Source: Streptomyces rubrogriseus
GTDB lineage: Bacteria > Actinomycetota > Actinomycetes > Streptomycetales > Streptomycetaceae
Assembly (NCBI RefSeq): GCF_027947575.1
Contig: NZ_CP116256.1
Location: forward strand, 124,001-188,000
DNA: 64,000 nucleotides
Direction: 5' to 3'
Notes under the pieces: model-generated
The model's database searches: none
What the model was told of the DNA's origin: nothing
Seen by the model: only the letters and a program-made list of their open reading frames with translations
Made by a program: the position numbers and the translations under genes
Shown here: positions 3,088 to 9,580 of the stretch, piece after piece
How the letters are laid out: each line of letters opens with the position of its first letter
Position numbering within the stretch: position 1 is the stretch's first letter

Positions 3088-3543
3088 TCAGAGGTCGAAC
3101 TCGTGCGGCGGCAGGTCGAGGGCGTAGCACGCCTCGCGGACCACGGCACGCTCGTCCTTGTCGAAGTCCCCGTCGGCGCCGCCGATCACGATGCCGATCT
3201 GGACCACGGCCCGTGCCTCGGCGGGCTTCTTCTTCGCCTTGGCGATCTCCTGGAGGATGCCGACCTTGCCGAAGGCGAAGTCGGCGGTCAGCTTGTCCAG
3301 GTTCTCCTCGAAGCGGCGGCGCAGGTCGTCGGCGGGGAAGTTCTGCAGCACCTCGTTGGTCGAGATCAGCTGGGCGACCCGCTGCCGCTCCGAGGCGTCG
3401 ACGGTGCCGTCGGCCGCGGCGACCAGCGCGCACATCGCCATGCTCGCGTCGCGGAAGGCGCCGCTCTTGAGGTCGTTCTTCTTCGCCACGAGCTGCGTCT
3501 GCATCTGCGACGCGGACTCCTTGAAGCGGTCCCACAGGGCCAT
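3088..3543 (-). CDS. TerB-family tellurite/stress resistance protein
   Basis: The 151-residue cytoplasmic protein matches TerB. It has paired acidic helix-loop segments, AAADGTVDASERQRV near the N-terminus and GGADGDFDKDERAVV near the C-terminus, which are the acidic (probably metal-binding) sites of the family. TerB works with TerD and TerC proteins in membrane-associated metal and stress responses. A CTACAG-type palindrome lies about 100 bp upstream and recurs before the neighbouring spo0M-like gene, hinting at common control. The ATG start is at 3543. Confidence 0.9.
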   Translation of the reverse strand: MALWDRFKESASQMQTQLVAKKNDLKSGAFRDASMAMCALVAAADGTVDASERQRVAQLISTNEVLQNFPADDLRRRFEENLDKLTADFAFGKVGILQEIAKAKKKPAEARAVVQIGIVIGGADGDFDKDERAVVREACYALDLPPHEFDL

Positions 3544-3640
3544 GAGAACTCCGTACTCCGTACCGGTCGGACGGGAAGGGATGTGACGGGAAGGGGTGAT
3601 CGGACTGGTCGGGGAGACCGGGACTGGCGGTCCCGAACCT

Positions 3641-3654
3641 CTACAGCACTGTAG
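3641..3654. promoter_or_regulatory. CTACAG palindrome upstream of the terB-like gene
   Basis: CTACAG-CA-CTGTAG is a perfect palindrome, 98 bp before the terB-like start and just beyond the spo0M-like stop. The wider block CTCTACAGNNNNGTAGAAGC is shared with 4689-4708. The binding factor is unknown. Confidence 0.5.
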
Positions 3655-3660
3655 AAGCTA

Positions 3661-4632
3661 TCAGCCTTCCCCGTCGCCGGAGTGGCCCTCGAAGAAGTCC
3701 CCCGCCTCGTCGACGACTTGGGCCGCCACCGTCCCCCCGGCGACCCCGGCGACCCCGGCGACCCCGGCGACCCCCGCGGCCCCGGCCGTGACGGCCGCGC
3801 CGACCCCGGAGTCGTGGCCGTACACCGCGTGGGAGCCGTACGACGCCCGGTGCTCGACCAGCTCCCGCATCCAGCCGTCGACGAGGGCGTTCCAGTCCCG
3901 CGGTCCGGCGGAGCCCTCGTGCGGGACGGTGAAGCGGCTGAGCGCGTCGTGGCCGCCGTGGCCGTCGGAGGGCGGGCCGCCGCGCTTGTCCGCCTCCAGC
4001 ACCACCTCGAGGGCGCCGGGTACGGCCAGGAAGGTCAGCTCGATCTCGTCGACCTGGTGGGCGAAGTGCGGGGGCGGGGTCAGTTCGATCTCCTGGTGGA
4101 AGGGCAGCTGCTGCCCGGTGCCGCCGATGCGGCCGTACTCCAGGTCGGCGGAGCGGAATCCGCAGCCGAGCCGGCCGAGGGCCTCCAGGACGGCCTCCTG
4201 CGCCGGGAGCGGCGCCACGGCGAACGGGTCCAGGTCGCCGCAGTCCCGGGCCCCGGCGACGGCCAGCTCGGTGCGCACGCCGAGCACGACGCCCAGCTGC
4301 CGCCCGTACAGCTCGGTGGCCGGGGTCTCCCAGGGCAGCGTCACCGTGAACGGGATGCTCGTCTCCTCGCCCGCCGCGAGCCGGAAGGCGCCGCTCACGG
4401 TGTGCCGGCCGAAGACGACGACGCCCTCGCCGTCACCGTGCTCCCCGTCCCCCGTCTCCACGCGGGCCACCAGCTCCAGCGCGACCTGCTCGACGTCGTG
4501 GCCGGCGGTGCCGCCGACGATGCGGACCCGGCCCGACAGGGTGCCTCCCGGCCGGGCGGCGCCCGGGGCGAGCGTCGTGTCCACCGTGGGTCCGCCCACG
4601 CCGAGGGAACCGAGCAGCCGCTTGAACACCAT
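3661..4632 (-). CDS. Spo0M-family sporulation-control protein
   Basis: The 323-residue protein begins MVFKRLLGSLGVGG and has the Spo0M layout: an N-terminal arrestin-like beta domain (GGTLSGRVRIVGG, PFTVTLPWETP) and a second beta domain ending in the EIELTFLAVPGALEVVLEADKR region. Spo0M proteins affect sporulation and envelope biology in Bacillus and actinobacteria. The C-terminal tail has a GVA tandem (bases 3738-3770) and is probably disordered. I chose the ATG at 4632 because GGAG lies just upstream and homology starts there; the open frame reaches 4710. A CTACAG-type element lies 58 bp upstream. Confidence 0.9.
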   Translation of the reverse strand: MVFKRLLGSLGVGGPTVDTTLAPGAARPGGTLSGRVRIVGGTAGHDVEQVALELVARVETGDGEHGDGEGVVVFGRHTVSGAFRLAAGEETSIPFTVTLPWETPATELYGRQLGVVLGVRTELAVAGARDCGDLDPFAVAPLPAQEAVLEALGRLGCGFRSADLEYGRIGGTGQQLPFHQEIELTPPPHFAHQVDEIELTFLAVPGALEVVLEADKRGGPPSDGHGGHDALSRFTVPHEGSAGPRDWNALVDGWMRELVEHRASYGSHAVYGHDSGVGAAVTAGAAGVAGVAGVAGVAGGTVAAQVVDEAGDFFEGHSGDGEG

Positions 4633-4690
4633 CGAGGCGTTCTCTCCTTCGCGTTCGTGCGGGGAACAACCGGAACCGGCCGGCCGTTCT

Positions 4691-4704
4691 CTACAGGCGA
4701 GTAG
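4691..4704. promoter_or_regulatory. CTACAG-type element upstream of the spo0M-like gene
   Basis: CTACAGGCGAGTAG repeats the flanks of the 3641-3654 palindrome; CTCTACAG and GTAGAAGC are identical in both. It lies 58 bp before the spo0M-like start. A shared activator or promoter class for the terB-like and spo0M-like genes is inferred. Confidence 0.45.
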
Positions 4705-4838
4705 AAGCATAGGGGTCTCAGGACTCCCGATCTTTTTGCTCGTCCTTTACCATGAGGGAGAACCCTCGGGCGCCCGGCTGGTACCGGCGCCCACCGACCC
4801 CGTTAAGGAGTCCCGTTCCGTAATGGAGCCTCCCAGTA

Positions 4839-7467: not shown

Positions 7468-7495
7468 GCTCGAACGCAAGTGCTTGGGGGGTTCT

Positions 7496-9580
7496 GTGTA
7501 CGAAATGGTCAAGGGGTCCAACGTCGCCCTGTCGACTCTGAGTGACAGCGTCGGCTCGGTCATCGTGAGCCTGGGCTGGGCCAGTCCGACCGGCGAAGGC
7601 GATGCGGACGTGTCCGTCCTGCTGCTGGGCGGCCAGGGGAAGGTGCGCAGCGACGCCGACTTCTACTTCTACAACAACGCGGTCGCCGCCGACGGCAGTG
7701 TGCAACTCCTGGGCAAGGCTCCCACGGGGGAGGGCAGCGAGGACCGTATCGTCTTCGACCTGACGGCGATCCCGCCGGACGTGGAGCGGGTGGTCGTCGC
7801 GGCCAGCCGGTACGAGGGCGCCCGGTTCGGTGAGCTGGACGACCTTCGGGTGACCTTGGCCGACGGGACCGGCGACGGTCTGCTGCGGTTCGCGATCGAC
7901 GACGCCGGGTCGGTGAGCGCCTTCATCTTCGGCGAGTTGTACCGCCGCGGTGAGGAGTGGAAGTTCCGGGCCGTCGGCCAGGGGTACGACAACGGCCTGG
8001 CCGGGCTGGCGACCGACTTCGGCGTGGACATCGACGACGACGCGTCCGGCGAGGACGAGCAGCCGGACGACGAGGCGGAGGACGTCGCCCGTCCCGCGGC
8101 TGTCACCGAGGAGCAACCGCCCCGCGCCGCGGAGCCGGAATCCGCACCCGCGGCGACGGCCGAGCCGGTGCCGTCCACGCCGTTGGAAGCGGTGCCCGCT
8201 CCCCGGCGGCCGGAGGAGGACGCGCAGCCGAAGAAGACAGCCGCACGTCCGCGCACCGCCAAGAAGAAGGTCACCCTGCCCAAGGTGGTGAAGAAGTCCC
8301 TCGCGGAGAACGACTCCTGGAAGGAGGCGAGGCTCTTCCCGGTGTCCGCGCTCAAGAGCGACCGGGACCGCGAGACACGCGCCACCTCGGTGCTGCTGTC
8401 GGTGATGGCGCAGGTACCGGAGTTCGGCAGGAGGCTCACCGCCGCCTTCGGCGCTCCGGCCGGCCGCATGGAGACCTTCACCGAGGTCTCGTTGCCGCAC
8501 GGCGACACCCCGCGCCGCCCGGACGGCGTCATCCGGGTGGAGCGGGCCGGCAAGTTGTGGACGGCGCTGGTCGAGACCAAGACCAACGGCAACGCACTCA
8601 GGCCCGAACAGGTGCAGGCGTACGCGGACATCGCCGCCAGACGCGGCTACGAGGCCGTCATCACGCTCTCGAACGACGTTGCGCTGGAGGGCAGCCCGCT
8701 CGTCGACGTCAAGATCGACGGCCGGCGCAAGCACAAGGTGGCCCTGTGGCACCTGTCCTGGGCCGAGGTGGCACACCAGGCACAGATGCTGCTGCGGCAC
8801 GAGGGCGTGGGCAACGCCGCACACGCCTGGCTGCTTCAGGAGCTCCTCCACTATCTCCAGCACGAGAACTCCGGCTGCCACGGCTTCCAGAACATGGGCG
8901 CGGCCTGGGTGCCCGTTCGCCGCGGCATCGACGACGAGACCCTGTGCCAGGGCGATCCGCGCCTGCTGGAGGTGGTCGAGAGCTGGGAGCGTCTCGTCAG
9001 GCAGGTCTGCCTGGGACTCGGCGGCGAACTCGGGCACAAGGTGCTCCCCGTGCAGCGCGCCAAGCGCGGAGCCGATCCCGGGGCCCGGCGGGCGGACATG
9101 GCGGACCGCCTGTGCGCGGACGGCAGACTGCACGCCGAACTGCGCATCGAAGGCACCCCGGGCGTACTGGCGATCACCGCCGACCTGCGCACCGGAAAGC
9201 TGCGCACGTCCTTCGACATCCCGGCACCCGAGCAGGGGTACCCCCTGACCTGGTCGAAACGACTCATCAGACGGCTCGCCGAGGCACCGGCCGACCTGCA
9301 CGTGGAAACCCTCGTCGAAGGCGAGGCGGGAGGACCGCGGGGCACTCTGGAGCGGCTGCGCCCGGAGCCCGCGGACATGCTTCCGAAGAACGGAGCCCAG
9401 ATCACCGGCTTCCGGCTCTCCCTCTTCAAGGGCATGGGCAACTCCCGCGGCAAGACGGAGTCGGGCTTCATCCGGAGCGTCGACGACGCCGTGCAGCGGT
9501 TCCACGCCTCCGTCGTCACCTCCCTGGACCGGTCGGCTCCACGACCGACGCCCTCGGCGGAGCGCGCCGCGGCGCCCTGA
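7496..9580 (+). CDS. TerD-domain protein fused to a PD-(D/E)XK nuclease-like domain
   Basis: The protein has about 694 residues. Residues ~1-190 are a TerD stress domain (LGWASPTGEGDADVSVLLLG, DADFYFYNN, FDLTAIPPDVERVVVAAS). An acidic then Ala/Pro/Lys-rich linker follows (~190-280). From ~285 a domain begins with RDRETRATSVLLSVMAQVPEFG and carries RPDG (Asp343) ... VETK (Glu360, Lys362), the PD-(D/E)XK nuclease arrangement; the end of the protein is unassigned. TerD domains bind calcium and appear in Ter phage and chemical defence networks, some of which include nucleases. The GTG at 7496 is preferred because GGGGGG sits five bases upstream; ATG 7505 is an alternative. Confidence 0.85.
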   Translation: MYEMVKGSNVALSTLSDSVGSVIVSLGWASPTGEGDADVSVLLLGGQGKVRSDADFYFYNNAVAADGSVQLLGKAPTGEGSEDRIVFDLTAIPPDVERVVVAASRYEGARFGELDDLRVTLADGTGDGLLRFAIDDAGSVSAFIFGELYRRGEEWKFRAVGQGYDNGLAGLATDFGVDIDDDASGEDEQPDDEAEDVARPAAVTEEQPPRAAEPESAPAATAEPVPSTPLEAVPAPRRPEEDAQPKKTAARPRTAKKKVTLPKVVKKSLAENDSWKEARLFPVSALKSDRDRETRATSVLLSVMAQVPEFGRRLTAAFGAPAGRMETFTEVSLPHGDTPRRPDGVIRVERAGKLWTALVETKTNGNALRPEQVQAYADIAARRGYEAVITLSNDVALEGSPLVDVKIDGRRKHKVALWHLSWAEVAHQAQMLLRHEGVGNAAHAWLLQELLHYLQHENSGCHGFQNMGAAWVPVRRGIDDETLCQGDPRLLEVVESWERLVRQVCLGLGGELGHKVLPVQRAKRGADPGARRADMADRLCADGRLHAELRIEGTPGVLAITADLRTGKLRTSFDIPAPEQGYPLTWSKRLIRRLAEAPADLHVETLVEGEAGGPRGTLERLRPEPADMLPKNGAQITGFRLSLFKGMGNSRGKTESGFIRSVDDAVQRFHASVVTSLDRSAPRPTPSAERAAAP

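What the first reader, a model, noticed from the sequence alone, without database searches (positions are those of the whole stretch)
7496..9580. TerD stress domain fused to a PD-(D/E)XK nuclease-like domain
Seen: a TerD domain, a long charged linker and a region with Asp343 and Glu360-x-Lys362 in the PD-(D/E)XK pattern, in one ~694-residue protein. Known: TerD proteins bind calcium, and some Ter networks include nuclease and DNA-processing partners. Inference: calcium or stress input may gate a nuclease, so this may act in phage or DNA-damage defence. The ~200 residues after the nuclease motif are unassigned.
Basis: partly seen in the sequence, partly recalled or inferred. Interest (0 to 1): 0.75.

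Follow-up and report, generated by a model that had tools for sequence, protein, structure and literature searches.

The report
TerD-nuclease fusion in Streptomyces and Rhodococcus
A widespread Streptomyces gene annotated only as a TerD-type stress protein joins a TerD domain to what looks like an intact DNA-cutting domain and a third, chaperone-like domain, so the label probably hides a nuclease that may be switched on by a stress signal.

Summary
In 348 aligned sequences E360, K362, Q372 and Y376 never vary; E330, P342 and D343 are missing only in one row with gaps. All 27 VIA-align rows over the nuclease stretch are to that fold, four by recall. TerD and nuclease share one frame in 75 of 80 named Streptomyces loci; plasmid copies occur in Streptomyces and Rhodococcus. 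The nuclease is the most constrained part (median dN/dS 0.07). Neighbour genes are not conserved: 24 of 105 genome pairs share one, against 105 of 105 for a canonical TerD, so it probably works alone.

Gating and defence remain inference. The acidic loop of canonical TerDs is replaced, so calcium input is doubtful; a defence-neighbour test was inconclusive. My best explanation is a self-contained, signal-gated DNase with TerD reading a Ter-pathway signal. The same genome holds another nuclease-TerD fusion, of Mrr type. Novelty: new variant of a known kind.

The parts
7496..9580 (+). Whole gene: TerD - linker - PD-(D/E)XK nuclease - helical segment - type III-chaperone/YbjN-like domain, 694 aa from GTG 7496 (691 from ATG 7505; start not settled)
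7486..7491 (+). GGGGGG, possible ribosome-binding site, 4 nt before GTG 7496 and 13 nt before ATG 7505
   Evidence: seen directly; function inferred
7502..8029 (+). TerD domain (residues 3-178); D-x-D motif kept, canonical acidic loop not kept
8045..8296 (+). Long disordered linker (residues 184-267)
   Evidence: pLDDT < 50
8333..8800 (+). PD-(D/E)XK nuclease fold (residues 280-435)
   Evidence: sub-threshold Pfam VRR_NUC in 22 of 64 members and Tox-REase-7 in 10 of 64
8483..8485 (+). E330, conserved Glu just after the first strand of the nuclease fold
   Evidence: 347 of 348, one gap
8519..8527 (+). P342-D343-G344, the 'PD' motif
   Evidence: P and D in 347 of 348, one gap; G344 is Ala in two rows
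8573..8584 (+). E360-T-K362-T363, the 'ExK' motif
   Evidence: E360, K362 and T363 in 348 of 348
8609..8623 (+). Q372...Y376 in the helix after the ExK strand
   Evidence: both in 348 of 348
8801..8938 (+). Helical connector (residues 436-481)
   Evidence: AF2 secondary structure
8939..9532 (+). C-terminal domain resembling class I type III-secretion chaperones and YbjN (residues 482-679)

Best explanation
The gene encodes a single-protein, signal-gated nuclease. Shown here by sequence and prediction: an N-terminal TerD domain, a flexible tether, a PD-(D/E)XK domain with a complete and conserved active site, and a C-terminal domain with a type III-chaperone/YbjN-like arrangement. Inferred: the nuclease is kept quiet and becomes active on DNA when TerD binds a ligand. 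The ligand is more likely the nucleoside-like product that others propose for the Ter pathway than calcium alone. The C-terminal domain binds a protein or peptide (a partner, a trigger or the protein's own inhibitory segment). Because no neighbour gene is conserved, no separate antitoxin or partner is expected. The output would be cleavage of invading or damaged DNA, or of the cell's own DNA under stress.
Confidence: 0.5

Rival explanations
1. Stress-time DNA repair or processing nuclease: part of the Ter stress response that trims or cuts damaged DNA, without a defence role. The YbjN-like domain would dock it to a DNA-repair protein.
For: No clear defence-model excess around the gene. A YbjN homologue, DR1245, is a partner of the radiation-induced SSB-like protein DdrB in Deinococcus (PMC3575483, title and start of abstract in a search listing).
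Against: Patchy: near full length in 26 of 150 family genomes, fragments or split copies in 11 more (my reading). Unstable location and carriage on plasmids are unusual for a housekeeping repair enzyme.
Confidence: 0.25
2. Stand-alone restriction of mobile DNA: the nuclease recognises foreign or modified DNA itself, and TerD only localises or oligomerises the protein.
For: Variable location, plasmid carriage, decayed copies. Relatives work without TerD. Fold neighbours include modification-dependent MspJI and AspBHI.
Against: No base-recognition domain was matched; the C-terminal domain resembles protein-binding folds. The defence-neighbour test was inconclusive.
Confidence: 0.15
3. Calcium-gated nuclease: Ca2+ binding to TerD switches the nuclease.
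For: The TerD fold is clear, and each Asp of the first D-x-D motif is kept in 207 of 214 fused relatives.
Against: The second acidic loop of canonical TerDs is replaced in the fused clade (Lys in 209 of 214).
Confidence: 0.07
4. Non-catalytic: the PD-(D/E)XK fold only binds nucleic acid.
For: Inactive REase domains exist in conflict systems (the Pfam family name NA-iREase1 appeared as a hit for the Mrr-TerD paralogue).
Against: The proposed catalytic residues are conserved over 348 sequences, the unfused ones at about 32-38% identity to this protein.
Confidence: 0.03

Closest known systems
CARF-REase effectors Can2/Card1 (CRISPR ancillary nucleases)
   Different: The sensor is TerD, not CARF; an extra C-terminal type III-chaperone-like domain is present. 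A CRISPR link was not looked for.
Mrr_cat-TerD fusion protein (L117 in the same genome)
   Same: REase joined to TerD in one protein, with an equally unstable context (10 of 105 genome pairs share a neighbour).
   Different: A different nuclease family (Mrr_cat, over its Pfam cut-off), placed N-terminal to TerD; the piece I read ends with TerD.
VRR_NUC and Tox-REase-7 families
   Same: Weak profile similarity over the PD...ExK region (22 and 10 of 64 members, best E 0.0099 and 0.0018).
   Different: The window protein is below the VRR_NUC curated cut-off (13.4 against 23.8 bits); it has TerD and a different C-terminal domain.
TY-chaperone superfamily (T3SS chaperones, YbjN, TY-Chap1-3)
   Same: Similar helix/strand order and best solved-structure matches for the C-terminal domain: of the top 20 VIA rows 15 are T3SS chaperones or YbjN proteins and 5 uncharacterised. 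Described as peptide-binding in conflict systems in PMC9503650 (passages).
Canonical TerD/TerE of Ter operons
   Same: TerD fold and Pfam match.
   Different: Acidic loop replaced; fused to a nuclease; not in a Ter operon.

Membership tests
TerD (PF02342) | Profile match over curated cut-off | tested here: met
   167.1 bits against 25.3
TerD (PF02342) | Canonical acidic loop GDN..GDDE (its role in calcium binding is recalled) | tested here: not met
   GKAPTGEGSEDR here; Lys in 209 of 214 fused relatives. The domain is still TerD by profile and fold
PD-(D/E)XK superfamily | alpha-beta-beta-beta-alpha-beta core with D and ExK on neighbouring strands | tested here: met
PD-(D/E)XK superfamily | Conserved catalytic D/E/K | tested here: met
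   E and K in 348 of 348, D in 347 of 348 with one gap
PD-(D/E)XK superfamily | Metal-dependent nuclease activity | not testable with these tools
   needs an assay
VRR_NUC (PF08774) | Profile match over curated cut-off | tested here: not met
   13.4 bits against 23.8, E=0.083
TY-chaperone (T3SS/YbjN) fold | alpha-beta3-alpha-beta2-alpha domain matching T3SS chaperones or YbjN | tested here: inconclusive
TY-chaperone (T3SS/YbjN) fold | Pfam profile match to a TY-Chap or YbjN model | tested here: inconclusive
   none among the 14 families listed for the 64 members at E<=1; the profile filters drop distant matches
Known anti-phage systems (PADLOC 2.0.0) | Match to any defence protein model | tested here: not met
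   0 families at E<=1
Ter operon component | Encoded beside terC/StiP genes | tested here: not met
   the genome's StiP gene and TerD cluster lie about 1.5 Mb away; a TerB gene is 4 kb upstream in the window, but its family is near the gene in only 5 of 81 loci

The most novel reading that the evidence does not exclude
A one-gene bacterial immune receptor: TerD reads a nucleoside-like second messenger made by the host's Ter operon, the type III-chaperone-like domain reads a foreign or misfolded protein, and only when both keys turn does the PD-(D/E)XK domain cut DNA. This would be a Ter-signal counterpart of the CARF-nuclease effectors, carried alone on plasmids and chromosomes.
Probability: 0.13. 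Interest if true: 0.82.

Novelty: new variant of a known kind. Interest (0 to 1): 0.52.

Why it matters
For this protein about 430 of 694 residues carry no Pfam or NCBIfam domain over cut-off, in a family with 1,888 scored relatives; source names are mostly 'TerD family protein' or variants of 'stress response protein'. If the nuclease is real, TerD is an input module for DNA cleavage in Streptomyces, and Ter signalling gains a concrete, testable output. The ligand of TerD and the product of the Ter biosynthetic operon are, as far as I recall, unknown; a TerD-gated nuclease would give a simple assay for that ligand.

Tried and rejected
NCBIfam and PADLOC listed no family for the protein, and PHROGs only TerD-region matches. 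A profile of 64 members found no related solved structure by sequence; the three hits at E about 0.8 are glucosidases. Operon partners: TerB, Spo0M and the two CNNM/CorC transporters next door look tempting, but the commonest neighbour family occurs in 16 of 81 loci (some loci end at contig ends). Defence-island test: 145 of 197 neighbour proteins (20 loci) against 145 of 184 control proteins (17 loci, one arbitrary place per genome): mad2 6 against 2, mad3 5 against 1, mad8 3 against not shown, while the control held a DpdF-like protein; 31 and 44 families matched, 25 of each shown, so I cannot count proteins with a hit. I call it inconclusive. Neighbour sharing is higher for this gene (24 of 105 pairs) than for Mrr-TerD (10 of 105), so it is not the most unstable TerD fusion. 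Co-occurrence with StiP is uninformative. PRTase_3: nothing rang even in control genomes. Single fusion event: the 19 fused rows lie on one side of a 100/99 branch, but the tool warns that long branches meet there (the Rhodococcus/L008 rows with the Streptomyces clade), and by raw labels it forces at least four changes. Seven rows labelled solo lie inside the Streptomyces clade: four are split copies, two are late starts of my simple gene caller, one (L135) has no TerD beside it. One fusion is therefore likely, not shown. Row choices: one search kept database proteins P0003-P0241 (the listed 120 of each of two searches) plus called genes over 300 aa with over 80% query coverage, 356 rows, 348 unique; one search kept 77 of 80 loci by two sequence words and dS under 2. 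Literature: in the listings I saw no title or abstract start about this protein; passages were seen in five papers. Anantharaman et al. 2012 on Ter systems, the likeliest place for a TerD-REase fusion to be listed, is not held, so prior description cannot be excluded.

Full report
What is there. The gene runs from GTG 7496 (or ATG 7505) to the stop at 9580 on the + strand and encodes 694 (691) residues. Of 214 fused relatives, 94 start at the equivalent of the GTG and 75 at that of the ATG, so the start is not settled. The genome is a single 8.41 Mb contig and the window is 124-188 kb from one end of it. The closest database proteins are from Streptomyces, among them S. coelicoflavus and S. 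lividans at 97-98% over the C-terminal 430 residues. Residue numbers here are for 694 aa.

Active site. In an alignment of 348 unique sequences (the window's own included; 214 with TerD by my count, 134 without), E360, K362, T363, Q372 and Y376 are present in all. E330, P342 and D343 are present in all but one row, which has a gap there. The set leans to close relatives; the unfused ones are about 32-38% identical. The nuclease part is the slowest evolving: median dN/dS 0.073, against 0.099 for the helical segment, 0.172 for TerD and 0.181 for the C-terminal domain, over 77 Streptomyces loci (TerD over 74). This is what a working enzyme looks like, but it is not an assay.

Distribution. In a sample of 396 genomes of the phylum 19 have a match to the C-terminal module, one of them weak; in 150 genomes of the family 37 have one, 26 near full length (six with one stop counted by the tool) and 11 as fragments or split copies (the division is my reading of the table). 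In Streptomyces it is fused to TerD in a single frame in 75 of 80 named loci, with four split by my criterion and one without TerD (the 80 are the best of 514 confirmed stretches); in 28 loci from unnamed family genomes the figures are 23, three and two. It lies on six Streptomyces and five Rhodococcus plasmids of 72,556 plasmid records; the two Rhodococcus copies that I opened are also TerD fusions, as is one from another family of the same class (L008). No phage record matched and one viral contig holds a partial relative. Elsewhere in the phylum sample, and in one database protein from a Dehalococcoidia bin, the module stands alone, in proteins of roughly 430-500 residues. In a 58-row tree all 19 fused rows lie on one side of a branch with support 100/99. 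That fits a single fusion, but the tool flags meeting long branches at that join, so it is not shown.

Context. Neighbour genes are not conserved. Over 81 loci the commonest neighbour family occurs in 16. In 15 genomes that hold both genes, 24 of 105 genome pairs share at least one neighbour family around this gene, 10 of 105 around a Mrr_cat-TerD fusion, and 105 of 105 around a canonical TerD. So the gene relocates, and it probably needs no encoded partner. A test for known defence proteins among its neighbours was inconclusive.

Relation to Ter signalling. The same genome has 19 TerD-domain matches, several of them in fusions: vWA-TerF, CAP, AIM24, and a Mrr_cat nuclease. It also has a Ter operon with two canonical TerDs, TerC/DUF475, a C-C bond lyase and a PRTase_2-TRSP-StiP-PELOTA protein. 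Published surveys propose that such operons make a nucleoside-like signal that TerD and TerB might sense (passages in PMC7824862; for TerD, PMC7159879), and one speaks of a TerD-dependent anti-phage system (passage in PMC3710099). On that reading TerD is the input and the nuclease the output. Calcium as the input is less likely here, because the acidic loop of canonical TerDs is replaced. Two different nuclease families joined to TerD in one genome strengthen the idea that TerD input and DNA cutting belong together.

Verdict. By architecture it works like a sensor-nuclease fusion such as Card1/Can2; it is not filed as a member of that family. Novelty: new variant of a known kind, with the caution that the key 2012 survey could not be read.

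Noticed in passing
L117:2448-3500 (own genome, about C1:7379447-7380499): A second restriction-endonuclease domain joined to TerD: Mrr_cat (E=3.5e-31) followed by TerD; matched in 21 of 32 chosen family genomes, 26 of which were picked because they hold the TerD-nuclease gene of this report.
   Followed up: partly
L116:2343-3500 (own genome): TerD with a long N-terminal region that looks BRCT-like by eye (not confirmed: Pfam found TerD only).
   Followed up: no
L118, L115, L110 (own genome): TerD fused to CAP, AIM24 and vWA-TerF domains: TerD serves many outputs in one genome.
   Followed up: no
L120 and L121 (Rhodococcus plasmids): RES-family NAD+ phosphorylase genes with a neighbour gene (toxin-antitoxin-like) near the TerD-nuclease gene on both plasmids; in L120 also a ThiF and Mov34/JAB gene pair downstream.
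   Followed up: no
window 3088-4710 (-): TerB and Spo0M genes side by side about 3-4 kb upstream, on the opposite strand; the TerB family is near the gene in 5 of 81 loci.
   Followed up: partly
G472:C1:237082-237888 and 9909668-9910474: Two identical-scoring copies of a Mrr-TerD gene matched in two pieces near both ends of one chromosome, as expected for terminal inverted repeats.
   Followed up: no
L013 (G258), L018 (G306): Relatives without a TerD match in which the open frame extends well upstream of the module; possibly other N-terminal parts or just long open frames in GC-rich DNA.
   Followed up: no
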